A stretch of 64,000 nucleotides of DNA from Pseudocercospora fijiensis CIRAD86. Its lineage: Eukaryota > Ascomycota > Dothideomycetes > Mycosphaerellales > Mycosphaerellaceae. The notes beneath the pieces are model-generated. The model did no database searches, was not told where the DNA came from, and saw only the letters and a program-made list of their open reading frames with translations. How positions within the stretch are numbered: position 1 is the first letter of the stretch; each line of letters begins with the position of its first letter. Made by a program: the position numbers and the translations under genes. Of this stretch, positions 3,560 to 57,258 are shown in pieces. The stretch spans positions 1,054,001 through 1,118,000 of the forward strand of contig NW_006921543.1 of NCBI RefSeq assembly GCF_000340215.1, in the 5' to 3' direction.

Positions 3560-6500
3560 GCAATTATTTAGTCTCGGGGTCGTCTAGCTATAATTCTAGG
3601 CGGTCTTTATCGCTAGACTAGTTAGGTTCCTCGGAGTTAGAGTTAGATAGCTAGAAGTCTAGTTCACTATTAGAATCGGAATTAATATCGGAAATGCTCT
3701 ATATATAGTTAATCCGTATATAACCCTCCCTTTGTTCTTAAGTTATTCCTAATAGCTTACTAAGAGGAATCTAGGGATAGGCATAGTTCTTAGGTAGAAC
3801 AGGATCTATAATAGCGGTAGGATCCTCCTCCCGATAGGCATCTAAGGACGGTAGAGGGTCTATAGAGGCACTAACTTCCTCCTCGGTCGGCGGAGGGCGG
3901 GCAGGTTCGCGCAACTTAACGATCTTCTTTAGATTAGCCCGAGGGTAAGAGTGCTTCAAGGTAGCACTATCTAGCTCCTAAAGAAGGTATACGGAACCCG
4001 AGTAAAGGACCTCCTTTACTCTATAAGGACCCTTCTACTTAAAGGCTAGCTTATAGGAGTAACTATACTCTAGTTCGGACCGGTATAGAAGGACTATATC
4101 GCTAACCTTTAGAGGTTCCTAATCAATAGCATTATAGTTATCAAAATACTGCTTAGCTTCCTCCCGAAGGCGACGTTGTCGAGCAAGACCCTCCTAAGAA
4201 GTCGTAGTTATATCCTTAAGAGCCTTAGCCCGTAGGGCAAGAAGATCTGCCCTAGTACGAACAGACCCCTAATCGTAAACGCCGTGCGTACGGTAGGACA
4301 ATTTAATAGGAAGAACGGCGTCCCTCCTAATTATAAGTTCCGCTAGTATAAGTCTAGTCGTGTCGACAATAGTAGTTCGGTCCGCCTAGAGAAGGGCTAG
4401 GACGCGGGTAGAAATGGGAACTAATCTGTCGCTACTATTAGTTATCTTAGATAGGGTATCAATTAACGACCGATAGCTGCGCTTAACAATAGCATTCGAC
4501 TAGGGATAGTACGGGGAGATACGAACGTTCTTAGCCCTATACGAAACAAGTAGCGCTTAAACTTCCTTAGCTATATTGTTCGTAGCGTTGTCTAAGATAA
4601 TCTCGTAAGGTGTTCCCTAGCGGCAAAACAGATCCTTAAATAGGAAGGTAGCTATATTACGGGCATTAATAGCACCGCAACCCTTATAGAAATAATAGGC
4701 CTCCGGCTATCGAGAAAGACCCTCTCGAATAATATATAGGCTATTATTGCGGCTAAGATAGACCCTATCGCTATACTACCGCTCCCTAACTAACTAGGCA
4801 GTAGGGATACGCAGCTCTCCTAGACGCCGGTAGCTGTTCCTAAAGTTGCACTTAGGACAGCTCTTATAGTAGCGGGAGACATTAGCCTATACGCCGTCCT
4901 ACTAGTAGCGTCGACGAAGGACATCGAAGGTGCCCTCTGCCGCCCGATAGCCGAGCTTATCGTAAACGGAACGAAGGATTTCTTATCGGGCTACTAGATC
5001 GTTAATAACACGCTAGAGCGGTATATTAACTATAGCCTATCGCTAAAGGATACGATCCTTAACAAGGAACCTCCGAGAATAGCGAATAATACGACGGTAT
5101 TAACTCTTTAATAGACCGGGAGCTCTCTTCGTATAGGTAAGGAAGTAGGCGATGTTATAGGAGTCGTCGGAGTAGACCCTATTAAGGATATTATCCCTAC
5201 CTAGTTCGCCCGCCTTAGTATCGTCCTAGCCCTCGTCGTTAGCAGTAGGGTCTTCGTTAGGCTAGTTACTAGGTTAGTCGTCGGCAGTAGGCCTAGTAAT
5301 TACCGGTATAGCATTAATATAGAAGGCAGTAAAGAAGGTGCGGTTAATAACCGCGTCGACATCCTCTTCTTCTATTATCTCGGCGATGTCCTCTTCTATA
5401 GCAGGCCTTCTAGAAAGGCTATCCGGCCTAGTATACTTCTTACTAGGAATATAGAAGACGTCGAAATCAAACAAATAGATCTAGGTAACCTACCGAGCTA
5501 TCGCAGAGTTAGGCAGGTCGGAGGCTATACGGTTAAGTTAATAGACTAGCGTCTAAGCGTCGACTTCTAGGCGAAAGAATACTCTAAAGAGCTAAGGTCG
5601 GAACTTCTTGAGAGCCTTATAGATACTAAGGCACTCTCGCTTACTAGTATCGTATCGGGCTTCGATAGGTTTCTATAGACCGGACTCGTACCGGATAGGG
5701 TAACGTAAGGAGGGCTCCTTACGATTACACTATATTAGTATCTCGCCGTAGCCTTCCCCGCTCGAGTCGATAGTAACAATTAGCAGACCTGCGCCTTCCG
5801 AGTAGTTAATAGAGGTAAGCGCAGGCGCGCTAACAAGCGCCTTAGTGACCTTGTCCTTAGCGGCTTAGTAAACGGAGGTCTATACAAACTCTGTATCCTT
5901 CTTAAGCAAGGCGTATAGAGGCTTATATACTAACGCAAAGTTTTCGACCTAGATACGGAAGTAGGAGACTACTCTAAGCTAGATCCGGACATCTTTCTAA
6001 TAGGTAGGGTCTAGCTAGGAGACAATCTTTAGGACCCGTGCATTATTAGGATAGCGGCCGTTCTTATTAGTTATAAACCTAACAATGTTTATTTGTTTGT
6101 ATAGGAGCTAAAGCTTCTCCCTATACACCGTTAGGTTAGCTCGCTCTAGGTCGTAGAGGACACTATCGAGGTTCTAAATGTGTTCGAGAAAGAACCTGCG
6201 GATGCTAGGCTCTACTTCTTTATTGTCGTACCTAGTTTTAGGGCCCTTAATGCCGATGTCGTCGAGGAAAGGCATCGCTATATAGGAGATATAGGCCGCG
6301 AGGACTTAGTTTATAATGCGAACAAACTAGGCTACGGAGTTAGTTGCCCCTTAGGGAAGGGTAGTTTGTCTATATAGCCTAAGAGGTGTCTCGAAACTAG
6401 TAAGGTCCCGGCTATTAGGGTAGAGAGGTATCTAGTCGTAGCCCGAGAATATATCAACTAGCGAGGCTACTACATAGTTAGCAAAGGCTTCTAAGAACCT

Positions 6501-11947: not shown

Positions 11948-12248
11948 TAATGCTACCCCTAGGGTGCTATTAGCTAACTAATTAGAGGCAAGGTAATTGT
12001 TAGTAAGGGACAATAAGACTATACTACTATAGCGAATATATACCGAGTGTTAACGAGCGTACTATAACTGTTAACTAACCGCCTACTCTTTTAAGGAGTC
12101 TACCTCTTTACTAGCGTACTCTATAAGACTCTTCTCTTAGCGCCCTCTCTCGTTTATTTATTCTATAGAGCCTCGAGGCCTAAGCGATCGATAAGGGCGA
12201 TACGCGCGCGTACAAATAACGGTAATAAGGATAATAGTGTCGCGCTAC
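11948..12248 (+). repeat. Chromovirus LTR, left half (split by hAT)
   Basis: Starts with the 25-bp palindrome TAATGCTACCCCTAGGGTGC... (11948-11972) directly after Pol and matches in inverted orientation the sequence from 24601 downwards. Continuity resumes at 22183, beyond the inserted hAT element, where the same LTR continues to about 22400. Confidence 0.75.
12241..12248. repeat. 8-bp target-site duplication, left
   Basis: CGCGCTAC immediately precedes the left TIR and is repeated exactly at 22175-22182. Eight-bp duplications are characteristic of hAT insertion. The paired empty site in the inverted LTR copy is near 24383-24392. Confidence 0.9.
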
Positions 12249-12268
12249 TAGACCCCGTAGTAGTTCGG
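12249..12268 (+). repeat. hAT terminal inverted repeat, left
   Basis: TAGACCCCGTAGTAGTTCGG. It matches the inverted right end with a single T/C difference that RIP would explain. Similar T-T-T-G-G-T-T-T runs follow on the inner side of both ends. Confidence 0.9.
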
Positions 12269-12390
12269 TTTCCGAACTACCAAACGTATATAGTTTGGTT
12301 TCTTAGCGGCGAACTAGCTCCCTAGTTCCGGTTTGGTTTTTTCGAACTATATAGATTCCTAGTTTAAACTAGAGACTATATTAGTTTTAC

Positions 12391-12700
12391 TATAAGGATA
12401 CTCTTATTCGACTGCCGGCTACAATTGCCGGCTATAATAGTAACTCTATTACATTTACTACGCTCTTTTGCCGTTACTAGGGCGTAGTTATCGTTGCTAG
12501 GGCGTAGTTGCTATTGCTAGGGCGTAGTTTTGCTATAAGGACACTCTTATTCGACTGCCGGCTACGATTGCCGGCTATAATAGTTACTAGGTTGTATTTA
12601 CTACGCTCTATTACCGTTGCTAGGGCGTAGTTGCCGTTGCTAGGGCGTAGTTACCGTTACTAGGGCGCAGTTGCTATTACTAGGGCGTAGTTGCTATAGT
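12391..12700. repeat. Sub-terminal tandem repeats in hAT left end
   Basis: Two copies of an approximately 143-bp block starting at 12391 and 12534, each beginning TATAAGGATACTCTTATTCG with one base change. Each contains a GCCGGCTA pair and then several copies of a 20-bp unit close to GCCGTTGCTAGGGCGTAGTT (12470-12530 and 12610-12700). Sub-terminal repeats often bind hAT transposase; that role here is inference. Confidence 0.8.
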
Positions 12701-13164
12701 TACGAAAGCTTACCTATATAACGTTACGTAGGCGGCAACAATTAGGGCTTCGCGATATTCTTATACTTTTAACTTCTTCCTCTATACCTATACCGATAAC
12801 AACTACTATACGCTACGCCCCCGCCCCTTTCCCTTACAATAGTAAGAGAGAAGCGCGCCGCGCGCTAAACAGAAGATAGAACTAAAGACCGCGAGTTTGT
12901 TTTACCTAAGCGTCTAACTAAAAAGCGCAAGACTAAAGAGGAGTACTCTACGAAGAAGAATTCCGTACGAGACCGCGAGAGAAAGGAGAAGATAGATAAG
13001 GATAAAAGAGCTAAGAATAAGAGAAGAAAGGCGCGGAATAAGGCATTCTATCGATAGCTAGCGCCTATAGAAAAAAGTGAAGGTTAAAATAAGAAGACAA
13101 CCTAAGAGAAGGCTAAGAGGAGGAAAGAATTGCAGCTAGTTTTCGAGCGTAAAGTTCTAGTAGC

Positions 13165-13264
13165 GTAAGTTAATCTAGCTAGCGGCCGTAGCTAGCAGCT
13201 ATAGCCGGCAGCCGTAGCCGGCAGCTATAGCCGGCATATTTTTCTTTAACACGTTAACTAATAG
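13165..13264 (+). other. Probable intron carrying AGCCGGC repeats
   Basis: GTAAGT donor, TTAAC-like branch region and TAG acceptor. The interior holds four or five AGCCGGC or near-AGCCGGC units in alternating spacing. Removal joins two open frames of the basic-protein gene. Confidence 0.6.
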
Positions 13265-13770
13265 TATTTAGACCTATAGCCGCTACCTCTATCGATACGA
13301 CCGATAGTAACGGAGATGTTTAGATAGCCGAGAACAATAATACTAGAGTTTAGGATACCGCGATAGAGCTTAATACTACGAATAAAGGAACTGAAAAAAG
13401 CGAGGAGATACTATACGTCGATCTAGTAATAGGTGCAGTCTTAGGGCCTAACGCTATAGACGATAAGCGCTAGGAGTAGATCGAGTATAGTTAAAGAGAC
13501 GAGATACTAGTAAAGGGCTAAGGTATAAGTCCTATTAATCTAGAAAATTATAGTTAAAGCTACTACGAAAAGCTAGCAAGGATTGGAATCGAGACTAGTC
13601 GTCTTTATATCCTCGATATAGAGTAGAAGTTTCTTTATTAGTATTAGAGCGAAGCCTTTACGTCTATAAAGGCAAAGTAGCTTACGATTAATGCGATCGG
13701 GGCTAGGTATCTAGGGACGGTAGAAGTGTTACTATAGGAGGAAGGGGTATAGGTAATTATTCTATACTCG

Positions 13771-13818
13771 GTATATATAGCCGGCGTTCGTAGCCGGTAG
13801 ATACTAATAGTTAAATAG
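13771..13818 (+). other. Probable 48-bp intron carrying AGCCGGC repeats
   Basis: GTATAT donor, two AGCCGG units, TACTAAT branch site and AAATAG acceptor. A typical minimal fungal intron. Confidence 0.55.
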
Positions 13819-14244
13819 AAAGCGTTTCTCGAAGGCAGAGTGCTACTACTATATAAAATCTTTACTAAGGTAGAGAGGGCTTATATCCGGAATCTAAGCT
13901 ACTAGTAGGATAGGTTAGCGTTAGAATTCTCTAAATCTCTATATAAGCCTCCGAAGGATTACCTATTTTAGCGATACGGCTTTATCTTAACTACTCCGTA
14001 GGCATCCGAAGAAGCTCGAGCGCTCTTTAAGGTCTTTACTAAGAAGCGGAAGGAGTTCGAGGATTAGGATTGGTTAATAGAGCTATTAGTTAGTCTTAGG
14101 TTTCGTAGTTAGACTCGGCCTAAGCATTTGCTTATCGAGTATCTTATACCGAAAGAGGATAGATTAAGACTAAAAACGAGCTTAGATTCGTTAGGTATAG
14201 TAGCTCGGTTCCGTTAGTAGGAGAGAGCCGCCGTATAGAAGGCA

Positions 14245-14345
14245 AAATTTAGGTAGTTAGGGTAGCTAGGAAAGAAATTCTAGTAGTTAGGCTAGCTAGG
14301 GTAGCTAGGAAAAAAAATCTAGTAGTTAGGTAGCTAGGAAACAAA
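14245..14345 (+). repeat. Low-complexity tandem repeat
   Basis: Repeated TAGTTAGG/TAGCTAGG units separated by A-rich runs. If CAG was the original codon they encode Q-L-G repeats at the end of the preceding gene. Confidence 0.55.
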
Positions 14346-15147
14346 AAAAAAGGTAGCTAGCTATTTACTGCCTAGCTGTTCCTAACGATACGATGCTATA
14401 AAAGAAAGGGTGTTTCCCTATAGCTACTAGTATATATCTACTACTCCTAAGTCCTTACCTTACCGTACGAAACCTTAAAACATGCCGACCGACATTATAT
14501 ATATACTAGGCGCTATACTAGGAAGGGTAATAACGAGACGATAGTCGAAATAGTCTAGTATACGAGCGAGATTGCGACAACGTCGAGAGGAGGTCGTACA
14601 CTTACCTTCGAGCCTATCGAGTCCTAGACGACGATTAGGGCTAGATTTATCCTCTCCGAATCCTAGTAGTAGGAATTCATTATAGGGTACTACTACGTAG
14701 TCCTTACCTTTACGGAGTCTAAGTAGAAGGTTATTCGGAGATATAAGAATATCGAGTATTAATCCGGAAATCTTCGAAAAGGCTAGCTAGGCGTATCTTT
14801 AGAAACCCGAGTATATAGAGCAGTTTAATTAATAGGTCTATAAGATATAGTTCCCTTTATACTTATATTCGAAGGAGTATAAACTCTAGAAGTACTCGAT
14901 GCGATAGGGGAGTAAGGAGCGAACGGATACATTCTAGAAGTTCTTTATAAAGGGGGCATTATACCGTTATACGACTTCTCGACTTAAAGGTTAACTAGTA
15001 ATTGTCTATAACTTCTACGGTTTAATCTTAAAATACCCGAAACTAGGGGATAGGAACTTATCGCCTACGAACTATCTCTATTCTAAACGGTATCGGGAAT
15101 CTTAAGGAGAGAGGAGAGTTAATATAGATATAGCGTTCTAGAAAGAG

Positions 15148-15213
15148 GTATATCTTCTAAAATGCCGGCTATAGCTGCCGGCTATAGATTCCGGCTACTT
15201 TAATTAACCGTAG
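15148..15213 (+). other. Probable intron carrying GCCGGCTA repeats
   Basis: GTATAT donor, three GCCGGCTA-type units, TTAAC branch and GTAG acceptor inside the transposase gene. Confidence 0.6.
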
Positions 15214-16168
15214 AGATCTAGCTAATTATTATAGGCTACGCTTAAGGAAGCTCTAGGATTAAAGGCTACCGATTTCTCCCCCGAAGACTTTAAGCAACTA
15301 GCAAACGAAATACTAGCTATAAACGGTCTTCCGGAAGACTTCTACGAAAGGGAGTCTATATAGAAGATATACCTATATCTTATAAACTACCCTCCCCTAT
15401 TTCTCGGCGCGACAACCTAGCGTATTATATTCGAAAAGAATAAAGAGGCTACGTTAGACGACATTCGGGAGATCCTCCGTAATACTCGCCGAGTAGCTAT
15501 TACTATCGATAGCTAGTTAAGCCGGACTATAAGAGCCTCCTTCCTCTCGATTATACTATACTTTATTAATTCGGATTAGAAACTCTAGGAACTTATAATC
15601 GGATTCCCTAAAATTCTAGGTTCCTATACTAGTAAGGATATAGCGAAGCTTGTCTATACGGCAATAGATAGGGTTAGCGTAACAACGAAACTAATCTCGA
15701 TTACTACGGATAACGCTAGTAATAATCGAACATTGTATAAGGCGTTATATATACAATTTACTCGCATATATCTTTAAAATTACTAATTATATCGATAGGG
15801 TCGAGTATATAGAGGAGATTATAAGGTCTACAATCTAGCTTAATCTTCCGAATATTAAGCTCGCTACGATTCCGGATACGTACGATAATACGTACGACGA
15901 TAACGATAAAGAGGAGCCTAGTAATAGCCCTAGCCCTATTAAATCGGAGCCGACGTCGTTACTAGTTGTATCCCTATAGAAGTTTCCCTACCTCGCTTAT
16001 ATAGTTCAAATCGCGATCCGAGCCCTCTTTAAAACGCTTAAAATTACACTATTAAACGACGACTAATAGAAGATCCTAGATAAGGATAAGGCAAAGTCGA
16101 AAGTCGAGAAACTCGTTATAGCAATAAGATAGGATAAGGTAGAGAGCCTCGCTCTCGTTTTGTATAAG

Positions 16169-16237
16169 GTATAACTTTTGTCCGTAGCCGGCACCTATAG
16201 CCGGTAACCTAGTATAGTTCTAACTCTTTTTCTCTAG
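16169..16237 (+). other. Probable intron carrying AGCCGG repeats
   Basis: GTATAA donor, AGCCGGC and AGCCGGT units, a strong TTCTAAC branch site, a polypyrimidine run and TCTCTAG acceptor. It is among the best-formed introns in the element. Confidence 0.7.
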
Positions 16238-17902
16238 CTTCGTCGTCTAGCAATATATACGAACTCGAGCTTATAGAGATATAACCGATTCGAGGCTATT
16301 TAAAAGAACCTAATCGAGCGCCCTAAAACTGATACCTAGAATATCGTATAGAATAAGCGATAGCAAAAGCGGCCTCCTTAGCGCCTACTCCGTTTTACCT
16401 AAGACGTTAAGACCTAGTTCGATTCGACTTTCTATATAGTTACGAGGGGATATACTTTACGTACCGCTCTCGAGATCTATTAGAGTTCCGAGGGTATTAA
16501 GTAGCTCGGCCTTACTACCGCCGAATAGCGCTAAGTAGAGTATCTCGTCGATATTAGTAAGTATTACGCGAAGGTTACTACTACGATTAGAAGAACCCGA
16601 GGACCGACGATCTACCTTGTCTTTACGTACTATAACTAGCTCTTTAACGAGCTCGAGGAAACCGTAGCTAAGCTAGCTAAGAAGAGCGTTCCCTAGAAAG
16701 TAGCTATAACGAAAGCTATAGATAGCTCCTATACTAAGTTACATAAATATTATAGTACTACCTTTAAGTCGTTCGGGGATATCTATAGCGTTGCGTACTT
16801 ACTTAACCCGGTAGAAAAGGATATATACTAGTAGAGGCCGGAATAGAAGGCGGACGAGGTATAGCCGAAGCATTACTAGACTATTCTAGAAAAGATGTTC
16901 TACGAGCGTCGGAAAGAAACTAGTCTAAATACAGCTCCTACGAAGAAAAAGAAGGTTTAGAGGGCTCCGATATTATATCTGTTTCGTAGGTAGGAAGTAG
17001 AGGCAGAAGAGGAAGCAACTACTAAAGGGAATAAAGAAGAGTTCGATCTCTATCGGCGCGCGAGTAAGTACAAACCCGTAGGCTCGGAAAGAGGGCTAAT
17101 AATCTCTAGATCTTACCGGTCTTCTAGACGAATTCGGTAACGATATTCTCGCTATATAGTAGCGATTAGAGCCTAAGTTTCTAACGATAGCGTCGGTCGC
17201 TCGGGACGTCCTCGCTATCCCGAGCGTAGGTATAGGCTATAAGAGGTCTTTTAGTATCGCTCGTTACTAGGGCCGCTTTAATCGAATATACTCGCCTACT
17301 ACCTTCGAATCTATTATAGTATTCCGATACTATCTCCTCTACTAGAATCGCTAAGGTAGGTTACTAAAGATTATACTAAAGGACTCGGAGTTAATCGAGG
17401 AATTAGAAAACCTTAAGATCGAAGAAACTTAGGAGCGCGAAGAGAATACGAAATTTAGTCTAAGCGAAACCCTAATTAGCGATAACGAAGAGAAGGAGGG
17501 CGGAGGCAGAAGGCGATACCGAGTCGAGAAGCGGAAACGTATATAGGCTTAGAGCAGCTTTAAGGAGACGAAGCGTTTATATATAAGGTAATATAGCCGG
17601 CGTATATAGCCGGTATATATCCGAAATGTATTTCGAATTCCTAGGACCTAAACAGACTAGTTACTATAGCAACCGACCCCGCTTACCTACGGACTATTTC
17701 TAATTCTCTATTCGCTCTTCCTCTCCTTCTTCCCTTTCCCTATATTCTTAAAGACAAATATACCTTAAGGATTCGGCTCTTCGGGCCTTCCTAAGCCGGC
17801 TACCTCCCCTTCCTTAAGCTACTATCCTTTATTCGAATCTAACGATAACCTACTAAGGCGGTTTAATAGAAGACTATTTATTCTAAAAGGCAAGAAGTAT
17901 TA

Positions 17903-19070
17903 ATGTCTTCTTACAATTATATACTTATTAATTTTCTAGGTCCTACCGATATACCCTCGTCGCCTAAACGTATAGATAAATATCTTTAGAGGCTAAAGGG
18001 TAAGGGTAAAGCAAGCTAAGTATAGGGAGACCGTAGCGAGAACGAGATATTAGAAGAGTAAGGCTCTCTATAGTATATACGAAGGAAGGGGGTTCCTCGG
18101 AAAATAGTACCGAAAAACAAGAAGGCTTTAGGTAGATAGGAGAAGGCTAAAAAGAGTAGGCGGACGAAGACTATCGCGAAGAAAAGTTATCTTTCTATTA
18201 AAAAAAAGGGAATAAGGTAGGACTCGACGATAAAGAAGCGGCGCTTTAAACTAGGTACTATTGCCCTTCGCTAAATCCGGCTTTTCTAAAACAAAAGAGG
18301 GACCGAGCTTTTAATCCCTAAGACTCCCTTCTAGCGACTCGTCCGAGAAATTATATTAGATTTTCGGTCTAGTATGCGATTTACGGCTAAGGCGATTAGT
18401 GCTCTTTAGGAAGCTATAGAGGCATTTCTCGTAACCGAGCTTAAGCTTTTAAACCTCCTTACTATCTATACGAAGCGGGTTACTCTTTAAAATAAAGATA
18501 TATAGCTTCTAGCTAAAATTCGGCGTCGGTTTATAGCGGATTAGTTAGAAATTGTATTTAGTCGTTAGATTAACCTAGGAGGAGGCCTATTTTCGTATCC
18601 TTTTACCGGCTATAGGTGCCGGCTATATTTCTGATTTTATCTCCGCGCCGTCCCTAAATCTAAGGTACGAAGTAGAAACCTAGTGCTCTATATTCACCCG
18701 GCTATTATAGAGACGAGCTACATTTAGATTAGTTTCTTCGTATATCGCGACCTAGCGGGTAGTAAGCGAAAGGGCGATAGAACGTTTATAATACGTCTCT
18801 ATTTAGACCTAAAATACAAAGGTCCTAAGGAGCCCTAGTATTCTAACTATAAGGAGATTCTTTAGTATTAGCACTTTAATCCTCTATACTACGAGGTAGA
18901 TAGTAAGCCTACGAGAGAGAAACTTCAACGAGAAATTCTCTATAATACGTAGCGCTATTGTATAGCTATAGATACGTACTAAGTCCGGCAACTCGAAGAA
19001 GAATTAAAATAGCGTATTAGCGACCGAGGAGGAGATCGATAGTATACTAGTAGAGTCGAGGTCTTATAAG
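17903..19070 (+). pseudogene. Histone H3-fold protein, CENP-A-like
   Basis: From an ATG at 17903, about 117 codons of basic tail lead in one frame into a histone fold at 18254: GTIALR-x-IRLF, then T-E-L-L-I-P-K-T-P-F, RLVREIILDF, M-R-F, A-I-S-A-L-x-E-A-I-E-A-F-L-V and KRVTL-x-NKDI. Each interrupting TAA/TAG lies where H3 proteins have Gln (PFQ, ALQEA) or another RIP-prone codon. Compared with canonical H3 there are two extra residues before T-E-L-L. LLIPK in place of LLIRK, and EAFLV in place of EAYLV, both recall CENP-A. The H3-type spacing of loop 1 argues against a typical CENP-A. After a possible donor at 18595 a downstream frame (FVYRDLAGSKRKGDR, about 18730) may be a C-terminal extension; I do not recognise it. 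Confidence 0.72.
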
Positions 19071-19650
19071 CGAAGCACAAGATAATATAGGCTCTTAGTC
19101 GTATAGAGTAACGTACTATATAAATAACTAGGCGTGCTACTCTTATTTACTTACGACCTATATCCTAGGATACTCTTATCGTACTTTTTATACTCTTTTC
19201 TAATACCTTACCTATAATCGCTCCGCGATAACCGAGTAAATATAAGCTATAGGATTTCCGCTCGGTACCTTAGCCTTTAAGATACGGCGGAGTTGATTCT
19301 CTATAATACGTAGCGCTATTGTATAGCTATAGATACGCACTAAGTCCGGCAACTCGAAGAAGATTTAAGACAGCGACCGAGTAGGAGAATAATAGTATAT
19401 TAGTAGAGTCGAGGTCTTATAAGCGAAGTACGAGATAATATAGGCTCTTAGTCGTATAGAGTAACGTACTATATAAATAACTAGGCGTGCTACTCTTATT
19501 CACTTACGACCTATATCCTAGGATACTATTCTCGTACTTTTTATACTCTTTTCTAATACCTTACCTATAAGCGCTCCGCGACAACCGAGTAAATATAAGC
19601 TATAGGGTTTCCGCTCGGTACCTTAGCCTCCGAGATAGGGCGGAGTTGAA
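18935..19650 (+). repeat. Tandem duplication of about 361 bp
   Basis: 18935-19295 is repeated at 19296-about 19650 with scattered substitutions and small deletions. Both begin ATTCTCTATAATACGTAGCG. The duplicated unit covers the tail of the CENP-A-like gene and the sequence behind it. Confidence 0.85.
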
Positions 19651-19924
19651 TTTAGAGCGATAGCCGGCACTCGTAGCCGGTATATAGAGACGGTAGTAGG
19701 CCTTTTTCTACTAAATAACTAGCTTGTTTAGTATAGCCTACCTAATATTTCTTATATTTACTAGCAATAGGCCTAGGTTACTTATAAGATTACTATAGCT
19801 AGTAAAGGCATTACTAAAGAATATCTATACTATAGTAGGATACTATTATTACGCCGGCTATTTATTAAAAGGAGGCTTTCGCCTATTACTATACCGGCTA
19901 TATATGCCGGCTATATTTTAAAGT

Positions 19925-19985
19925 CTGCCGTACCTACCTTTTTTAGCCGTACCTACCTTTTTTAGCCGTACCTACCTTCTTTCCT
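19925..19985 (+). repeat. Three copies of a 20-bp repeat
   Basis: GCCGTACCTACCTTTTTTAG occurs three times in a row, the last copy slightly changed, next to a pair of GCCGGCTA units (19892-19915). Confidence 0.8.
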
Positions 19986-20460
19986 TGCTCTAACGTTACT
20001 ATAATATAGGCTTACGCGAAGCTTACTCTATTGCCTAGCAATACCGCGATACTACCTCTCTCGCTATATTCAACCTTCGTATCGATACCTATACCTCTAC
20101 GCTCTATATCTACTACCTCCCCAATACCCTCGCTCTACGCGCGCCTTCGTATACCTTCGTAACGCACTTTTTTCCTTAATTCGACGACTTTTATAATACC
20201 GAGTCTACTTAACTAAGTTATAACGCCTCGTAAGAAGGAACCTACTACTTCTACGGGTCGTAATAAGACCGGAAATAATAGAACGAGCATAGTATATTAA
20301 CGTAAGAGGGCTGCTACTACTACCGCTAGCTCCGGTACTAGAAAGGGCGTCGCGAGTAAGGCTCCGCGTAAGACAACGGCGGGCAAGGCTCTACGCAAGA
20401 CGATAACTAGCGCTTCTACTACTAGTAGCAATCGTATAAAGCGTCGATAGCGCCTAGGAA

Positions 20461-20575
20461 GTAAGTCCTATTTATAGCCGGTAGCGTAGCCGGTAGCGTA
20501 GCCGGTAGCGTAGCCGGTAGCGTAGCCGGTAGCGTAGCCGGCATTCTTACTGTCTTTTTACTAATCCTTCTTTAG
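20461..20575 (+). other. Intron with 12-bp AGCCGGTAGCGT array
   Basis: GTAAGT donor, five to six tandem copies of a 12-bp unit (20475-20543), TTTTTACTAAT branch site and CTTTAG acceptor. Its removal restores the conserved G-T-V-A-L-R junction of histone H3, which independently supports both splice sites. Confidence 0.85.
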
Positions 20576-20758
20576 CCGTAGCCCTCCGTTAGATTCGGCA
20601 GTATTAGAAGAGTTCTAAGCTCCTAATCCGTAAAGCTCCTTTCCGACGACTTATTCGCGAAATTGCCTAGATTTATAGAACGGACCTTCGCTTCTAAGCC
20701 TCCGCGATAGACGCCCTTTAAGAGGCTATAGAAGCCTACCTAGTTCGTATCTTCGAAT

Positions 20759-20806
20759 GTATGTTTCTCTCCTACCTCTTTTCGGACTATACTAATACTA
20801 CTTTAG
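20759..20806 (+). other. 48-bp intron without the repeat
   Basis: GTATGT donor, TACTAAT branch and TTTAG acceptor. Removal places N-L-I-A-I-Y-A-K directly after R-I-F-E, as in H3. It lacks AGCCGGC units, so the repeat is not required of every intron in the element. Confidence 0.8.
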
Positions 20807-21084
20807 CGGTTAACCTTATAGCTATCTACGCGAAGCATATAACGATTATAGATAAGGATTTCAAAGCACTCGATTAGATTCTAAAAGGCTAGAATGTCTA
20901 TATTCGAGATAGTGCTAGGTAGGATAGATGTTCTAGTAGGAAGGATGTTCGTAGTGTCGTCTATAAGCTTTTCTATATACGAAATAAGCCGCGGTTATAC
21001 GGCGCTATATACCGCGCTCTAAATACTCTCTAAGCATATATATATAGTATAGTATGCTTTATTAGCCGTACGGAATAGAAGTCT

Positions 21085-22020
21085 TCGAAAATCCCGTTAG
21101 TACTAAGGAGTTAAAAGGCCGGCTACGCTGCCGGCTACGCTACCGGCTACGCTGCTAGGTCTTATAAAGAACTAAAAGAAGATAGACATTCTAGTTAATT
21201 TGTATTAGTTTAGATTTTTAGAAAAAGAAAACAAGGAAAAAAGGAAGAAGATTAAAGAACCTAATACTTATAGTTATAGGCATTATCCCTGTTCTCTAGA
21301 CTATATTATATACCTGCTTTCGCAACTCTACCTAATACTCCTACTAAATATCCTTATACTCTACCTACTAGAAATTCAACTAGGTACCTAGACCTATAGC
21401 TGCCTCTATATCTTTTACTATCTTCTATAGGTTGAAGGACTCCTCTATAGCAGCCTCTACTTCCTTATATAATACGAAGTTACTACCTGCCCTATCCTTA
21501 ATATCTACTAAATAACCTAGAGTTCTAAGGAACGAACTAGTATTCGGCCGTAGTATAGCGAGTAACTAGTAGAACGCCCTATAGAGCTACCTTATAGCTG
21601 TTTCGTATATAGTACCGATATCGAGGGAGGAGCTATCCTAGTACTTAATGTTAGAGTATAGTTTAGTAGGAAAGTATATAAACTTCTTACGGAGAGCTTC
21701 GACGGAAATCGATAAGTTCTGCCTAGATCTAGATAAAGACATTCTACTAAGCAGTTAGGGAATTAAACCGTAAACGAAAGGATAAAATTCATACCTAAGG
21801 AGTACAGTTTCCGAACTAAACTATAATGCCTTGTATATGTGTATATATGCTTTTAATTAGTTAGTGCCCTTAGCTAATTGTCTATAGATTTGAGGTTATA
21901 TAAGTACCTTTATACAACTACGTAGCCTAAGTAGGATTCGAAAATTCTATAAGTACTAAGGACTAAAAATGCCGGCTACGCTGCCGGCTACACTACTGAG
22001 TCTTATAAAGGGCTTGCTTA
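21085..22020. repeat. Direct repeats with GCCGGCTACGCT units flanking an ORF
   Basis: About 90 bp at 21085-21175 and 21930-22020 share a frame of TCGAAAAT..., TACTAAGGA, GCCGGCTACGCT units and then GTCTTATAAAG. The pair brackets the minus-strand ORF at 21290-21742. Confidence 0.7.
21290..21742 (-). pseudogene. Small helical protein of unknown function in hAT
   Basis: An ATG at 21742-21740 opens about 150 codons (MSLSRSRQNLSISVEALRKK, later Y-E-T-A-I-R, LYKEVEAAIEESFN and KDIEAAIGLGT). About ten in-frame stops, nearly all TAG, fit former Gln/Trp codons. Leu/Ile/Ala/Glu-rich segments suggest a mostly helical protein. It runs opposite to the histone-fold genes and close to the right TIR. I do not recognise the family. 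Confidence 0.5.
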
Positions 22021-22154
22021 AAGCTACGTATACATTCGTACACTTCTTAAAAACCGATAAATTATATAGTTCGAACCAGCTACTTATATAGTTGCTTAGC
22101 AAACCAACCCAAACCAAACTAGAGTTTCGGCTTAGTAAACTAAACCAAACTAAC

Positions 22155-22174
22155 CCGAACTACTGCGGGGTCTA
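22155..22174 (-). repeat. hAT terminal inverted repeat, right
   Basis: Inverted copy of the left terminus, with C where the left end has T at position 10 of the repeat. Confidence 0.9.
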
Positions 22175-22182
22175 CGCGCTAC
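22175..22182. repeat. 8-bp target-site duplication, right
   Basis: CGCGCTAC, identical to 12241-12248. Confidence 0.9.
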
Positions 22183-38889: not shown

Positions 38890-40420
38890 AAATCAGAAGC
38901 CACAGTCCTGGAAAATTGTGGAGATACTTCCAGCTTCCAGATATATGAAGACAACCCCAAGATTCGGCGGCGTTTGCTACGAAAAATTGACCTGCACGTG
39001 CTCCTACCGCTATGGATCCTCCTCTTCCTATCCTTTCTCGATCGTATCAATCTGGGCAACGTTGCAGTCCTAGGAATTATGGAAGACCTGGATTTGACAG
39101 GCAACGCATTTAATATCGCTCTTCAAGTCTTCTTCATACCATTCGTTCTGCTAGAAGTGCCGAGCAACATTGTGCTGCGCAAAGTACGGCCATCGCTGTG
39201 GCTCTGCTCTTTATGCTTCTTTTGGGGGATTGCTTGCCTTTGCCAAGGTTTTGTGAAGAGCAATGGCAGTCTCATCACATGTCGTGTCTTGGTCGGAGTC
39301 TTCGAAGCTGGATTTACGCCAGGATCTTACTACCTGATGTCGATGTATTATCGCAGATATGAGCTCCAGCGAAGGGTCTCGATCTACTGGTGTGCGGGCG
39401 TGTTCTCGGCAAGCTTTGGAGGACTTCTAGCTTATGCGCTTGCGCAGATGGACGGTATGGGAGGGCTGGCGGGCTGGCGGTAAGTGGGCCGATCTTGACT
39501 TGGTATTGGACGGACAGTAACTTTGGATAGATGGGTCATGATCATGGAAGGTCTGCTCACCGTGGTTATAGTGCCTCTTGTCTATCTCGCACTCGCGGAC
39601 TGGCCTGAGCAGGCAACTTTCCTCACATCAAGCGAGAAGCAGCATATCCACTGGAGAATGGCGCAAGACATCCCGACGACAGCCAGAATGGATCGTTTGG
39701 ATAGACAAGCGTGGTTGCGCATTTTGAAGGACTGGAAGCTGTGGCTCTGGGGCATCATGTACGTGGGTATCGGCGTCTGCATCTATGCAACGGCATTGTT
39801 CCTTCCCAGCATCCTCTTCAGCCTAGGGTACAGCGGGATTCAGGCCAATGTGCGCACCATTCCCATATGGCTGGTTGCCGGTGTGGTCACAATCGTCGTT
39901 GGTTTCGGATCAGACTGGACGAAGCACCGGTGTGGCTTCATGGTGCTGAGCGCAATGGTGGCCCTGGTCGGACTCGTGATCCTCTTCTGCCAGGGCGACA
40001 CGCCTACACCACTTGTACCAGATGCAGGCCTGGATGTCGGTGTCCGCTACATGGCGTGTTTCTTCATCGCAGCCGGCACGTATGCAATCAACCCGCCCCT
40101 GATAAGCTGGACGAGCTCGAGTTTTGCAGGCCACTACAAACGTGCCATCGGCATCTTTCTCATTGGCATCTGGCAACTCTGCTGGTTTCATATCCAGCAA
40201 CATTTTCGTTCGCAGCGAGGCGCCGAGGTACTTCGTTGGCTACGGCGTGTGCATTGGGGCAATGTCACTCCAGATCGTAGCCACGGGTATGTTCGCGTTG
40301 GGCCTGCTTTGGGAGAATCGGGAGCGCGATCGCGGCGAGAGGGATGATAGAAGGCTGTTGCCGGAGAGGGAAGCACAGAATCTTGGTGACGATGAGCCAA
40401 GCTACAGATTCACGCTGTAG
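38890..40420 (+). pseudogene. MFS transporter, Dal5/allantoate-permease-like, frameshifted
   Basis: The exon reaching 39479 encodes LRKIDLHVLLPLWILLFLSF, then L-D-R-I-N-L-G-N, the start of transmembrane segment 1 of the anion:cation symporter (Dal5) family. Later come V-P-S-N-I-V-L-R-K-V-R-P-S and G-V-F-E-A-G-F-T-P-G. An intron at 39480-39530 (GTAAGT...ATAG) rejoins G-W-R-W-V. The second exon gives the remaining segments. At 40171 one extra T breaks the frame: before it reads A-I-G-I-F-L-I-G-I, and after removing it G-N-S-A-G-F-I-S-S-N-I-F continues to L-W-E-N-R and a stop at 40418-40420. The start is not settled: no in-frame ATG lies upstream of 38974 before a stop at 38848-38850, so a further 5' exon or a lost start is needed. 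Function: probably uptake of an organic anion or vitamin. It may be a recent pseudogene or a sequencing error. Confidence 0.8.
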
Positions 40421-40937
40421 ATCGAGACCAGCAGCACATCCAGTGGTATATCCAGTAGCATGTCCAGGATGTAGTCCGTAGAACCTAGTCCAGCGGTCCC
40501 AGAAATCCCCCTGCCAAGCAAAATCCTCCACCTCCACCTCCACCTTCTCTCTCCTCACGACAAGCAATGAGTCTACAATGTTCCATTCGTCACATCAAAC
40601 TCGATGCATATCAGCAGCAACAGTGCTCACCCACGAACGAGACCCAACCATACATTGCACGCCTCAGCACGTACCACATCGTCAACCCGACAAATGAGTA
40701 GCTAGAATACAATGTGCATAGCGAGACATCAGGGCCACTGCGCAACTCAGAGACTGTGCTGAATGAAGAAATGTCATTGATTCTATGACTTATTACTTTT
40801 GTCCTTTCATATTGACTGCAGCCTAAATGTTCTAGTAGCCTCAAAATCCCCAGCATTCGACCCATTATTCGAACGCCTACCAAATGCGTCAGAATTCATA
40901 CCTCGCTCCATGCCACATCACGATTGCAAGAACGTGT
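40421..40937. other. Intergenic region, convergent 3' ends
   Basis: Lies between the MFS gene (plus) and the secreted protein (minus). Unmutated composition; no gene seen. Confidence 0.5.
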
Positions 40938-41510
40938 CTATTTAAGAATGAATGGGACACCGAGAGCCACACCGAGACCATCGACCACAAGTCCGAGACC
41001 ACTAAGAAGACCGGGTTGGTAGCCGCCGAGGCTGTAGAAGAGAGTCGACAATCCGCATCCGTATCCCAAACGACCATAAAACGGTGGGCCCCCGCAGTAG
41101 TAGACTACAGGCTTGACTGTCGAACGGCCAGTGTGAGGGTTCGGGTCGTCGTTCTTCTTATCATTAAGTTTGGACAGCTCTTCGGCTTCTTCCTTCTGGT
41201 CGCCTACTTTGAATTCGATGTGGCGGCCGGCGAAAGCTGCCTTCAGGTCTGCCTCGATGTCCTTCGCATCGCGTTCGGAGTAGATTTCGGCGAGGTCGAC
41301 GTTTAATTCGACAGAGGAGCGGTCTTTGACTGCCTCAAGAATCTTGTCGTAGTCCTGGGCTTTGATAGCATCTGCCAAGGCGTTGCCGTCGTGGATTTGA
41401 CAGCCTCGTCGCGCTAGCGGAATGATAGAGTCGGAGGATGAGACCGGTGAGGGTACAGCAAGGCTGAGGCCTGCTGTGGCGAGAATTGCAGCGAAGTACT
41501 TGAGTTGCAT
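40938..41510 (-). CDS. Small secreted protein, candidate effector-like
   Basis: 190 codons from ATG 41510-41508 to TAG at 40938. I chose this start over one 17 codons upstream because it places a typical signal peptide at the N-terminus (MQLKYFAAILATAGLSLAVP). An A-R-R-G site near residue 34 could be cleaved by a Kex2-type protease. The middle (about 40-125) is acidic, helical and lysine-rich (RDAKDIEADLKAAF, EEAEELSKLNDKKNDD). The last 50 residues are Gly/Leu/Tyr-rich with Y-Y-C-G-G and G-Y-G-C-G-L. Only three Cys are present. No known domain recognised. It sits alone between RIP-mutated repeat blocks, a common setting for effector genes; a role in host interaction is inference. Confidence 0.7.
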   Translation of the reverse strand: MQLKYFAAILATAGLSLAVPSPVSSSDSIIPLARRGCQIHDGNALADAIKAQDYDKILEAVKDRSSVELNVDLAEIYSERDAKDIEADLKAAFAGRHIEFKVGDQKEEAEELSKLNDKKNDDPNPHTGRSTVKPVVYYCGGPPFYGRLGYGCGLSTLFYSLGGYQPGLLSGLGLVVDGLGVALGVPFILK

Positions 41511-43129
41511 GTTCGCTGTGGCTGTGTATTGACAGGCTGATGTATGATATGTAGTGAGCACCGCCTGACGGGGCCTTGGATGAGAAGGGTGTGTTCGGAA
41601 GAGGAAGAACTTGATCTTGTCGATCCAGTGGCTTGCTTCTCGTGGTGGCGAGCGGTCTGCCTCTCTTCGAGCGGAGAACTTCCTTCACTTTATAGCATCG
41701 TCTAGCATCGAGATGCTGGCAGCCATCATCTAACATTAGCGTTTTATCGAGCATCCATCGCGGGCTGAAATTCCCAGGCAGTCCGCTTGTGCCTGTGTAG
41801 AGCTGGTTGTGATGAAACGCTTGGTCAAAGATCAAATTTACAGTTCTACCGTGCCCCTGCCGAACTTCAGGAACCAGAGAAGCATGATAGGCAGAACCGA
41901 AAAGAGGTTTGATATGCTACCAGGAGTGTTTCTATCTTTGATCAAACCAACAATGGCGCACAAGGTATCAAGCTTTTTTTGGCGAATTTAAACCCTAGAC
42001 TGCCTTTATTGCCGAGCCTGGTGCGGGATTACGCTTGATTTCTTTACTTTGACCGCACATGGTAGAGAGGCCCACAATGTGGTGCCATAGATGGGTGCCT
42101 CTAATGGAGAATCAATAACGAACCTGGCGAGAAAAGGCCATTGACGGGAACAACGACGAACTACCATTTGGCGAGGAAACCAAAGAAGCCGAACGAGGAC
42201 TTTGCTGCATTACTAGAACCACTTATTAGTTCTACTCGACGTCCTACGATCTCCAAACCAGACCGATTGAACTCGGCCAGAAACCTAGGCCACCATTCGG
42301 AAGAAGAAAGTTCAGTCACAGGCGTGCAATTTCACGGCTGTTGGTTCTCAAGGCATGTCGACAATCTCCTTGGTCGATTCGATACTTTAGGTTGTGAATG
42401 TGAATCTGATAACGGAGTACCTGCTGTAGGTACTGTATGTACTACAGTACCTAATAGACCAAGGTTCGGAAATTATCTGGACGCCGGTCTCTCCGCCGTG
42501 TGGGCTCATCACAACCAAAGACGTTCAGTACGCTATCACCAGATTGGCAGGAGCAAGATATGTATGTCACTGAGGTATACTTCATTATCTCGAACCTTGG
42601 GACCAGGATATGAGTGACGAATGCGAAGTACTCAGGTCATCGCCGACGGCTGCCGGCCGTGCTATCTTGGGCAGCTCAATTTATTAGCGGCCTGGTTGAT
42701 GAAGTACCATCAGGTGATGTGATGAACGGGCTCGAGATAATATCGCCATCTACGATCAAGAGCCGTACAGTACAGCTTTTCGTGAACATGTACATTTTTC
42801 CCCAAATCTTGGTAAGTCGCATGCCGATGACTGGAGTCTCAAACGGCAGACGCAGAGGCATCGCTGGCCGATAGAATATCGAGTCTTCATCAGCTCAGAT
42901 ACATACATGTAGTTAGCTCAGAGATTATTCTACGTTCAGCAATGACAATACCACATGCCTGTCCGCCATATCTCAAGATGCAGTTGCCCAAGATGGAAGT
43001 GCAATTAAACTTGAACAGAGGTGAACGACGCTCGGATAGCAATGTTGGTCAAAAATGTGCTTGTAGGCGGCTGCGCGTGCCTACTAAGTGCGAGCGAAGC
43101 TTTCGTACTCCGCAGAGCCAATAGAATGC
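41511..43129. other. Unmutated intergenic DNA, no supported gene
   Basis: Open frames such as 42141-42617 lack recognisable motifs, introns or codon bias and I do not support them as genes. It contains a 10-bp inverted repeat with 5-nt loop at 42428-42452. The promoter of the secreted-protein gene should be at its left end. Confidence 0.5.
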
Positions 43130-54733: not shown

Positions 54734-55038
54734 GTCTTAGGCCTTAAATACCTCGCGCTGTCTTATTAATAAGACAGACTCCGGATTTATAAAGTATATA
54801 CAAAGTAGGTAGGTCCGCGATAAGACGGATTAAATACCTTTTAGATAGAAAGGGGCGAAAAGACGGCTATCTTTTCGATCGATCGCTTAAAAAGTCGCCT
54901 ATCTTTCGAAAGACAGCCTAAAGCGAGTCGTGCTATCTTTTATAAGACAAGCTTCGGTAAGATAGATTTTTCTAAAAGCTGTCTTATAAAAAGATAGTGT
55001 CTTATTAATAATTCAAACTAAGGTATTCAAGGCCTTAG
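54734..55038. mobile_element. MITE-like element, about 305 bp
   Basis: Ends match as inverted repeats: CTTAGGCCTTAAATACCT on the left and its counterpart ending AGGTATTCAAGGCCTTAG on the right. Inside are several GTCTTAT/ATAAGAC palindromes (GTCTTATTAATAAGAC) and no ORF. It marks the right edge of the repeat block. Confidence 0.65.
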
Positions 55039-56402
55039 AAATGGTCTATAGTAGAAATTCGAGCATACCAATGTAAACACTTTAGTCTACGAGCTTAATA
55101 GAGTTTGTGGCTCGTGGTTCTCCATCCCTACGCTCGGAGCACGGGTTCATTATTCAGAGCCTCTCCGCCGTCTCATGTTCATCGGAATGCTCTCTGTCTC
55201 TGGAGTAACTTAGGCTTTCCCGCGATGGTGGGTCTCACTACTCATCACACTACTGTCAGCGAAAGATCGTCTTGCTTCCTTTGAATTCGCGCTGGCAAAG
55301 GAGGACGTGATGAGGTTGGAGAACATCAGAAGCCACCAAAAATTTCATTCCATTCTTTCGCCTGAGATCCTTCGTACGACCGGCGCGGCTGGGACATTCA
55401 TCAGGCTTGCCGGCCGCAAGCTTTTCCAGCACACCATCCCTTTAATCTCCTCCTCTCTACAGCAAGTGGTCGCTGCGTCGCCGCCAAGCTCCCATCCAGA
55501 GTCTTTTTGCTTTTCTCGGACTGAGAAGAGCGTGACGATTTTATACTGTCGGCGATACTGGTTGCTCAGAAGCCGCGCTGAAGCGGAGTCAAGTCATACC
55601 GGCGCTATACCGTGCTGGAGGAGGTTATACTGTGGTAAATGAGATTGTATAGTCACTATAGTGTAGTTTAGTGATGCTGTGGTGAGACGGAGAGATGGGA
55701 AGCTTGAGAGCAAGAGTCAAACAGTGGTACGTGTTTGCTGCACAATGTCATTTGCCAGGCGTTTGTTTCTGTATGCAACGATGCCCTCAAACTTTCCAGA
55801 ATGCCATGGTTTGGGGATGAACAGCCTAGTCTGCCATCGAACGATCCATCATTGGCAATAATGAAGCCTCTCAACCTCAAGGAAACCCAATGCGAAACCC
55901 TCTGGGATCGAAGCGATCTGGGTCTTGGACCTTGGCATTCAAGGCATTGGCTTTTCTGTAACGCGATTCTGCATGTGTAAGATTCTCGAACTCCCTGCCG
56001 CCTGCGGGCCTGGGGTTGAGCTCGCCATTCAGCTCTCGTGCCCTCCGGAAGAAAGTGTCCGCTGCATGTGTGGCTCTCGTTCTCTCGCAAAAGACACCGC
56101 GGTCGCTGGCACTGAAATCCAACTTTTTATTGCTTCGTCCCAGCTTAGAGACGTTCAGACGGGCAGCATCCAGCTTCTTGGCCGACTCATTTGCATAGTC
56201 ACCACTATGGACGCAATCAGCGTACAGGTTCAGCGTGATGGTAATAATGATATGCGTAGTTGATTTCGTCGTATCGAGGGTGTAAGTGCAAGTATGTGTC
56301 TTCTCTCTCATGCAAAGTGGTATCATGATCATCGAAGAGGAGGAAAAAGAGATATCCTAGACCAGATCCAGGTAGATAAAATCCGGGAAGATCAGGCAGT
56401 AA
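55039..56402. other. Unmutated intergenic region
   Basis: Normal composition. Several open frames on both strands overlap each other and none has recognisable motifs. It would contain the 3' flank of the Rpc31 gene at its right end. Confidence 0.5.
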
Positions 56403-57258
56403 TTACCAAGCGTCTTCGCCACCGCCGTCATCTCCGCCATCGTCATCGACTCCATCGCCGTCGTCGAAGTACTTCTCTGCATTGTAGTCGTTGCCCAGAT
56501 CATCATCGTCTTCGGAGAAGTCGTCGTCCTCGGGGATGTCGATGCCATCTTCGTCACCTTCTTCGTTCTCATCGGCATCGTCGTCATCATCCTTGTCAGC
56601 GGCAGCGGTCTCGTCGTCAGCGCCTTCATCGAACTGAGCAAGCTTGTCGACGCGCTTCTTCTTGATTTGAGTCATTTGCTTTTGTACGCGGTTCTGGCGG
56701 ACTTCCTCTTCCTCGTCATCGCTAGGGGCCAGGTCTTTCAGCTCATCTGGGAGAAACTCCCGAACTGTTGACGAGTCAGTAAAATACGGCATCTCGATGT
56801 CTCAGGTGGCGCATACGCATGACAGTGTTCTTCAGATTTGGCAGACCAGTCGTGCGCTTTTGGCGCTTGCTGCTGAAAGTCGCTTGATCCTCAAAGGCAT
56901 TGAAATCGGCTGGATTGCGCTTGCCAGTCTGTGGGTTGTCGATGAAGAATGAGCCGTCACGCCTCTCCTTTCTGAGGGTGCGATAATCTCGGACACGCTG
57001 TCTCTCCCAAGGAGTTGGTGGTGGCGGTGGGCGAACTTTCATGTCCTGCCATTGACGTTAGCAGACCGAGAAAGCACTTTGAGAACGACAAGATCATCGT
57101 GCCATATGGCCACATACCGGGTAGAGCGTCTTCAACCAGTCCTCATCATCGACCTGGTCGGCGCGGTACTGAGCGATTTGGTTTTCGAGATCGGCGTCAA
57201 CTTCGAATGGCAGGTCTTTGCCGCCCATGCGACCGGCACCACCTGGACCACGCGACAT
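56403..57258 (-). CDS. RPC31: DNA-directed RNA polymerase III subunit Rpc31
   Basis: Three exons: 57258-57118, 57045-56817 and 56764-56403. Introns 57117-57046 (GTATGT, GCTAAC branch, GGCAG) and 56816-56765 (GTATGC, TACTGAC branch, CAACAG) give 732 nt, 243 residues, in frame. The N-terminus M-S-R-G-P-G-G-A-G-R-M-G-G is the Gly/Arg-rich start typical of C31 proteins. A middle L-P-F-E and P-P-P-P-P-T-P-W-E-R part follows, then a long acidic tail ending D-D-D-L-G-N-D-Y-N-A-E-K-Y-F-D-D-G, the conserved C31 end. Rpc31 belongs to the Rpc82-Rpc34-Rpc31 subcomplex needed for Pol III initiation at tRNA and 5S genes in the nucleus. Housekeeping gene in tandem with the helicase upstream. Confidence 0.88.

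What the first reader, a model, noticed from the sequence alone, without database searches (positions are those of the whole stretch)
12249..22174. hAT transposon carrying two histone H3-fold genes
A precisely bounded hAT element (20-bp TIRs, exact 8-bp CGCGCTAC duplication) contains, beside its transposase, two genes with clear histone H3 folds plus two unknown ORFs. I know of no described hAT that carries H3 or CENP-A-like genes. A transposon that supplies its own nucleosome subunits could alter chromatin or centromere identity at its copies, or counter silencing. The sequence shows the genes and boundaries; the function is inference, and this copy is dead through RIP.
Basis: partly seen in the sequence, partly recalled or inferred. 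Interest (0 to 1): 0.92.

Follow-up and report, generated by a model that had tools for sequence, protein, structure and literature searches.

The report
Known histone-carrying fungal transposon, RIP-killed
This is a dead copy of a mobile DNA element carrying two histone H3-like genes; the element is already described in a banana-pathogen fungus, but its histone genes look older and more gene-like than the published account suggests.

Summary
In detail: a 9,926-bp hAT-type element with 20-bp ends (one mismatch), an exact CGCGCTAC duplication and two histone-H3 genes, heavily mutated by RIP. The novelty claim fails. Dhillon et al. 2019 (PMC6710886) describe this family in Pseudocercospora fijiensis: 9.5-9.9 kb, 20-bp TIR, 8-bp TSD, two H3-like genes per full-length element, 471 elements, all RIP-inactivated. 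Manning et al. 2013 (PMC3538342) describe another H3-carrying hAT in Pyrenophora. The genome here is unnamed but matches P. fijiensis in implied size and in its one intact H3 gene.

Three points go beyond what I read there. (1) H3-2 has two intron-like insertions, one of them the paper's '16-amino-acid insertion', so a pure retrocopy origin is doubtful for that gene. (2) RIP cannot explain 32 of 91 (H3-1) and 23 of 86 (H3-2) fold differences from host H3. (3) Both genes occur in three diverged subfamilies although DNA between them turned over. They had diverged long before this amplification. Neither shows CENP-A hallmarks, but deep trees are unresolved. RIP-proof selection is significant for the transposase, not for the histone genes taken whole. 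A counter-silencing role is a testable guess.

The parts
12249..22174 (+). hAT-type element, 9,926 bp
   Evidence: ends and duplication; repeat family
12241..12248 (.). target-site duplication CGCGCTAC, left
22175..22182 (.). target-site duplication CGCGCTAC, right
12249..12268 (+). terminal inverted repeat, left
22155..22174 (-). terminal inverted repeat, right, one mismatch to the left one
12842..14349 (+). unknown gene A (read by eye in the frames; limits approximate; intron-like stretches near 13165-13271 and 13753-13818)
   Evidence: frames; intron-like pattern scan; no Pfam match
14379..17372 (+). hAT transposase region in several frames, limits approximate; dimerisation domain within 17112-17372
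   Evidence: frames; Dimer_Tnp_hAT E 0.005, 17 bits, below cut-off; transversions by codon position 27/21/41 over 15250-17345, p 0.008
18092..18540 (+). H3-1: H3-like tail and fold in one frame, no intron seen; basic N-terminal extension upstream in the same frame
   Evidence: PF00125 at 18152-18523; PDB H3; tails
18650..19650 (+). block between the histone genes, with a tandem duplication of about 355 bp (18935-19295 / 19296-19649); not shared with subfamily B
20226..20460 (+). H3-2 tail part (exon a, start approximate)
20461..20575 (+). H3-2 intron-like insertion A, 115 nt, one codon from host intron 2
20576..20758 (+). H3-2 fold, first part (exon b)
   Evidence: PF00125 at 20578-20757; PDB H3
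20759..20806 (+). H3-2 intron-like insertion B, 48 nt (the published 16-residue insertion)
20807..20892 (+). H3-2 fold, last part (exon c)

Best explanation
The feature is one full-length, RIP-inactivated copy of the published histone-carrying hAT family of Pseudocercospora fijiensis. It moved by cut-and-paste transposition with its own hAT transposase (8-bp duplication). It carried two diverged H3-like genes as resident genes, multiplied them with itself, and was then destroyed by RIP. Shown: structure, copy number, RIP, two H3 genes, divergence that RIP cannot explain, both genes in three subfamilies. Inferred: the species, the introns of H3-2, and any role. My best guess for a role while the element was alive, at about 0.3: the surplus H3 proteins enter nucleosomes with tails that are poor substrates for H3K9 methylation and so weaken silencing of the element. 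The confidence below is for the description, not for that role.
For: Ends, duplications and copy number. Size, ends, two H3 genes, the 16-residue insertion in the second, and CpA>TpA bias as in Dhillon 2019. Intact host H3 with three exons, 411 nt and 136 aa on contig C6, as that paper gives for scaffold 6. 32 of 91 and 23 of 86 fold differences from host H3 not explainable by C>T or G>A. Both genes readable in 8 of 9 copies from three subfamilies. The H3-2 tail exon changes length only in multiples of 3 in 7 copies. [quoted passage not shown] H3-2 keeps K9 but not S10 in the four copies with a clear register.
Against: Selection on the histone genes since the subfamilies split is not significant for H3-1 (6/4/9, p 0.15), the H3-2 tail (6/11/4, p 0.95) or its first fold part (6/5/7, p 0.39), only for the last part (2/1/7, p 0.02), and that is one of 14 regions tested. 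S10G, the residue read in this copy, was recessive in Neurospora. No expression data. Residues read from RIPed copies may themselves be RIP products. The silencing role has not saved any copy seen from RIP.
Confidence: 0.8

Rival explanations
1. Passive transduplication: the element once picked up host H3 sequence (in the published view a transcript or retrocopy) and multiplied it as ballast; the genes never did anything for the element.
For: The published reading. H3-1 has no intron where host H3 has its second. RIP-proof transversions show no significant constraint on H3-1 or most of H3-2. The ratio of non-degenerate to four-fold transversions against host H3 is about what a neutral branch beside a constrained host would give (my inference and Table 1).
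Against: H3-2 has intron-like insertions, one within a codon of host intron 2. Both genes persist in three subfamilies while the DNA between A and B was replaced. Length changes in the tail exon keep the frame. Hosts of H3-carrying hATs recur (Pyrenophora).
Confidence: 0.45
2. Insertion B of H3-2 is a coding insertion of 16 residues, not an intron.
For: It keeps the frame (48 nt in 7 of 7 copies) and has 0-1 transversions in each of 6 pairs compared, fewer than the fold part beside it. Dhillon 2019 reads it as an insertion.
Against: GTATGT, a TACTAAT branch-like motif and TTTAG lie at its edges in this copy, and leaving it out gives the canonical H3 length. The 5' GT is AT in the other 6 copies, the TG>TA kind of change that RIP makes.
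Confidence: 0.2
3. One or both genes are CENP-A-like and tied the element to centromeres.
For: The AU tests do not reject H3-1 with CENP-A (p 0.45) or H3-2 with CENP-A (p 0.12). The H3-2 fold varies around helix 1 and loop 1 between subfamilies (rows), a part in which CENP-A also varies (recalled).
Against: No loop-1 extension and no RW signature as in the six CENP-A rows; the best tree puts H3-2 beside host H3 (92/83) and H3-1 away from the CENP-A rows. PDB best 60 rows are H3 for both.
Confidence: 0.05

Closest known systems
H3-carrying hAT family of Pseudocercospora fijiensis (Dhillon et al. 2019, PMC6710886)
   Same: Length 9.5-9.9 kb, 20-bp TIR, 8-bp TSD, two H3-like genes with a 16-residue insertion in the second, CpA>TpA RIP, hundreds of copies, one intact host H3 of three exons, 411 nt and 136 aa on scaffold/contig 6.
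   Different: The paper infers an intronless transcript or retrocopy and could not find the dimerisation domain; here H3-2 looks intron-bearing and a sub-threshold dimerisation match is seen. Not aligned directly: its consensus was not available to me.
H3L-carrying hAT of Pyrenophora tritici-repentis (Manning et al. 2013, PMC3538342)
   Same: hAT with an H3-like gene and an unknown ORF between its ends; tail altered, neither H3 nor CenH3.
   Different: About 5.6 kb, one H3L, tens of nearly identical copies with little RIP; Dhillon 2019 reports no nucleotide similarity to the Mycosphaerellaceae elements.
Viral histones, e.g. bracovirus H4 (search listing only)
   Same: A mobile genome that brings its own nucleosome subunit with a modified tail.
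   Different: Virus, H4, and a reported effect in the host; here a transposon, H3, and no function shown.

Membership tests
hAT superfamily | 8-bp target-site duplication | tested here: met
   exact in the window; 5 exact and 1 with one mismatch of 11 facing pairs, 0 of 110 swapped
hAT superfamily | short terminal inverted repeats | tested here: met
   20 bp, one mismatch; 449+454 in the genome against 2+1
hAT superfamily | transposase with C-terminal dimerisation domain (Dimer_Tnp_hAT) | tested here: inconclusive
   E 0.005, 17 bits, below the cut-off of 21.4, in the window; E 0.0077 in L063; no DUF659 match
P. fijiensis H3-hAT family (Dhillon 2019) | 9.5-9.9 kb, 20-bp TIR, 8-bp TSD | tested here: met
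   9,926 bp, 20 bp, 8 bp; 7 of 18 facing pairs on C1 are 9.3-10.05 kb apart
P. fijiensis H3-hAT family (Dhillon 2019) | two H3-like genes, 16-residue insertion in the second | tested here: met
P. fijiensis H3-hAT family (Dhillon 2019) | sequence identity to the deposited consensus | not testable with these tools
   consensus is in a supplementary file; no look-ups in supplements were allowed
Intronless retrocopy of host H3 | no introns in the captured gene | tested here: inconclusive
   H3-1: none seen. H3-2: two intron-like insertions, 115 and 48 nt; no transcript to prove splicing
CENP-A | longer loop 1 and RW signature | tested here: not met
   absent in the 6 H3-1 and 7 H3-2 rows against six CENP-A rows
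Functional H3 gene | open reading frame | tested here: not met
   stops in the window's H3-1 and H3-2; 148 of 150 scored genome matches have stops, the 2 without are host H3 and host CENP-A; 772 candidates

The most novel reading that the evidence does not exclude
hAT elements of dothideomycetes carry long-lived H3 variants of their own, with tails altered around K9 and gained at least twice, which act as built-in antagonists of H3K9-methylation silencing: a mobile element that supplies a dominant-negative nucleosome subunit. Not excluded by: H3-1 and H3-2 being about as different from each other (43 of 86 residues shared) as from host H3 (46 of 91 and 49 of 86); both genes in three subfamilies; altered residues around K9 in H3-2 copies; and surplus tail-mutant H3 genes breaking silencing in Neurospora. 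One common origin of H3-1 and H3-2 is not rejected (p 0.31).
Probability: 0.25. Interest if true: 0.85.

Novelty: already known. Interest (0 to 1): 0.42.

Why it matters
As a discovery the element is already in print. What would matter is whether its histone genes are ballast or a tool. If they are a tool, this is a transposon that attacks silencing through the nucleosome itself, and Neurospora reporters for H3K9-dependent DNA methylation, with the intact Pyrenophora gene, make that directly testable. The intron reading also bears on how host genes enter DNA transposons: by DNA capture or through a transcript.

Tried and rejected
Minus-strand genes: no Pfam match at E<=1 in three minus frames; the only stop-to-stop frame of 80 aa or more listed is a 103-aa minus frame at 14475-14786, which I treat as chance.

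Protein relatives: an X-masked H3-1 query of 255 aa gave none of 309 candidates, and an X-masked transposase stretch none of 7,990 scored, at E<=0.001. The subfamily-B H3-1 gave 33 of 70 candidates. I fetched 17 of the 33; they read as H3 or CENP-A without the H3-1 tail. By name the rest include a histone-like protein of a clam virus record. No Pyrenophora H3L was recognised among the names.

Unknown gene A and the middle block gave no Pfam match; two other transposase pieces gave weak chance-like matches (SelB-wing_3 E 0.012, Glutaredoxin2_C E 0.17). The intact-looking hAT locus L064 showed no DNA similarity to the element and no Pfam match in the 5 of 6 frames scanned. The deep tree is unresolved: none of five AU tests rejects. 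One search printed the right-hand duplications wrongly because I assumed reversed loci; one search replaces it. Related species could not be searched: the whole genomes offered for cross-species search are prokaryotes, and G000 has no relatives there. Structure prediction was not run.

Papers: (20 of 55 listed) led to Manning 2013, (2 of 2) to Dhillon 2019; others (20 of 13,785 listed; 20 of 165 listed) showed no later paper on this element among the rows listed. Seen: Dhillon 2019 abstract, Results, Methods and part 1 of 2 of the Discussion; Manning 2013 outline and passages; PMC3248561 passages; the bracovirus and viral-histone papers as a search listing only.
Full report
What is there. The element spans 12249-22174 (9,926 bp), with 20-bp inverted ends that differ at one base and an exact 8-bp duplication CGCGCTAC outside them. 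The end pattern occurs 449+454 times in the 73.9-Mb source genome with up to two mismatches, against 2+1 for the reversed pattern. Of the places one search lists, 52 lie on contig C1; 18 neighbouring pairs face each other, 7 of them 9.3-10.05 kb apart and 4 under 450 bp. Of the 11 facing pairs with flanks in hand, 5 have an exact duplication and 1 has one mismatch; swapped pairs gave 0 of 110. Base composition shows saturated CpA>TpA change (CA 0.20, TG 0.18, TA 1.68 of expectation).

Genes. With stops as X, two histone matches lie on the plus strand: H3-1 (18152-18523, 73 bits) and H3-2 (20578-20757, 54 bits). Both match H3 chains of the PDB. Ahead of them lies the hAT-type transposase, whose dimerisation domain is seen only below the curated threshold, and before that an unknown gene A (frames). 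A search of the genome with the histone family scored 150 of 772 candidates: 148 have stops, and the two without are exons of host H3 and host CENP-A.

Prior art. Dhillon et al. 2019 (PMC6710886; sections read) describe this family in P. fijiensis: 784 H3-like sequences in 471 elements, 133 full-length elements of 9.5-9.9 kb with two H3-like copies each, 20-bp TIR, 8-bp TSD, all inactivated by RIP. They put the elements at 3 Mb or 4.1% of the genome, which implies about 73 Mb, the size held here. The host gene they describe (411 nt, 136 aa, three exons, scaffold 6) matches the intact H3 gene here on contig C6. The assembly here has 30 contigs, theirs 56 scaffolds. Manning et al. 2013 (PMC3538342; outline and passages) describe another hAT with an H3-like gene in Pyrenophora. 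The finding is therefore known, and very likely from the same species.

What looks different from the published account. The paper infers capture of a transcript or retrocopy. In H3-2 the tail and the fold are in different frames, separated by 115 nt that begin GTAAGT, hold TACTAAT and end TTTAG, one codon from the position of host intron 2. The paper's 16-residue insertion in the second copy corresponds to 48 nt with GTATGT, TACTAAT and TTTAG. In seven copies from three subfamilies the tail exon part is 269, 239 or 284 nt, always the same length modulo 3, while insertion A varies from 69 to 115 nt and is not constant modulo 3. Against this, insertion B shows only 0-1 transversions in 48 nt in each of six pairs, fewer than the fold beside it, and its GT reads AT in the other six copies, a RIP-like change. 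I put the intron reading of H3-2 at about 0.75. No intron is seen in H3-1.

Age and selection. 32 of 91 residues of the H3-1 fold and 23 of 86 of H3-2 differ from host H3 in ways that C>T or G>A changes cannot give, and H3-1 and H3-2 share 43 of 86 residues. The paper's own table points the same way, with 55-56 non-synonymous transversions at 233-234 non-degenerate sites. Three subfamilies (A: window, L066, L071; B: L063, L065, L068, L069; C: L067, L070) differ from each other by roughly 9-28% in aligned stretches. Both genes were readable in 8 of the 9 copies; L069 did not match my text pattern although its DNA aligns. These copies were picked from the histone hits (and L063 from its neighbourhood), so H3-1 is present by choice; H3-2 is not. 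Between the genes about 1 kb is not shared by A and B.

RIP-proof transversions by codon position (1/2/3) between the window and L063, 14 regions tested: transposase pieces pooled 27/21/41 (p 0.008); two pieces ahead of it 7/4/3 (p 0.89) and 2/2/12 (p 0.0008); gene A 9/6/12 (p 0.15); H3-1 tail and fold 6/4/9 (p 0.15), its fold alone 4/1/5 (p 0.21), the stretch before it 5/4/4 (p 0.68); H3-2 tail 6/11/4 (p 0.95), first fold part 6/5/7 (p 0.39), last part 2/1/7 (p 0.02); insertion B none. So selection is shown for the transposase and only hinted at for the histones.

Trees. With 24 rows, H3-1 forms one clade on a long branch (0.82), H3-2 forms one clade beside host H3 (92/83), and the CENP-A rows lie apart (89/97). 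AU tests reject none of five alternatives: H3-1+H3-2 (p 0.31), H3-1+CENP-A (0.45), H3-2+CENP-A (0.12), H3-1+H3-2+host H3 (0.39), H3-1+host H3 (0.10). Neither gene has the CENP-A loop-1 extension (rows).

How it may have worked. Shown: a transposon with a transposase and two H3 genes. Inferred: that the histones were made and incorporated. In the four H3-2 copies with a clear register (window, L066, L063, L065) K9, K14, K18, K23 and K27 are kept and position 10 is G, G, Q and Q. In subfamily C a tail deletion makes the register ambiguous, and L067 and L068 lack the anchor motif. [quoted passage not shown] Surplus variant H3 could thus have weakened silencing of the element; I give this 0.25-0.3. 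Plain ballast (0.45) is at least as likely on present evidence.

Verdict. The open and interesting part is whether the histone cargo was selected.

Noticed in passing
window 12415-21990, e.g. 13202-13240, 16185-16207, 20475-20541: Thirteen clusters of a 12-13-bp TAGCCGG / CCGGCTA motif in both orientations: 36 of the 44 sites in the window lie in the element; a paired form occurs 471+467 times in the genome against 0+0 for the reversed pattern. They seem to lie in intron-like or intergenic stretches. Function unknown.
   Followed up: partly
L056/L057 (C1:8853279-8853651), L059/L060 (C1:8896685-8897057): 373-bp elements with the same ends and 8-bp duplications (exact; one mismatch): short non-autonomous relatives.
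   Followed up: partly
window 18650-19650 and L063 about 5030-5880: The DNA between the two histone genes is not shared between subfamilies A and B; in A it holds a tandem duplication of about 355 bp.
   Followed up: partly
H3-2 fold of L063, L065, L067, L068, L070 against window 20578-20757: H3-2 varies most between subfamilies around the N-terminal helix, helix 1 and loop 1 (rows), while H3-1 is more uniform. Diversifying selection or recombination was not tested.
   Followed up: no
window 39001-43000 and 55001-64000: Stretches of about 48-54% GC beside the RIPed 31-46% GC of most of the window: probably gene-bearing islands.
   Followed up: no
G000:C2:4666571-4666819 (in L064): A hAT dimerisation domain in an 805-aa frame without stops inside the match: a seemingly un-RIPed hAT in the same genome, with no DNA similarity to this element.
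   Followed up: partly
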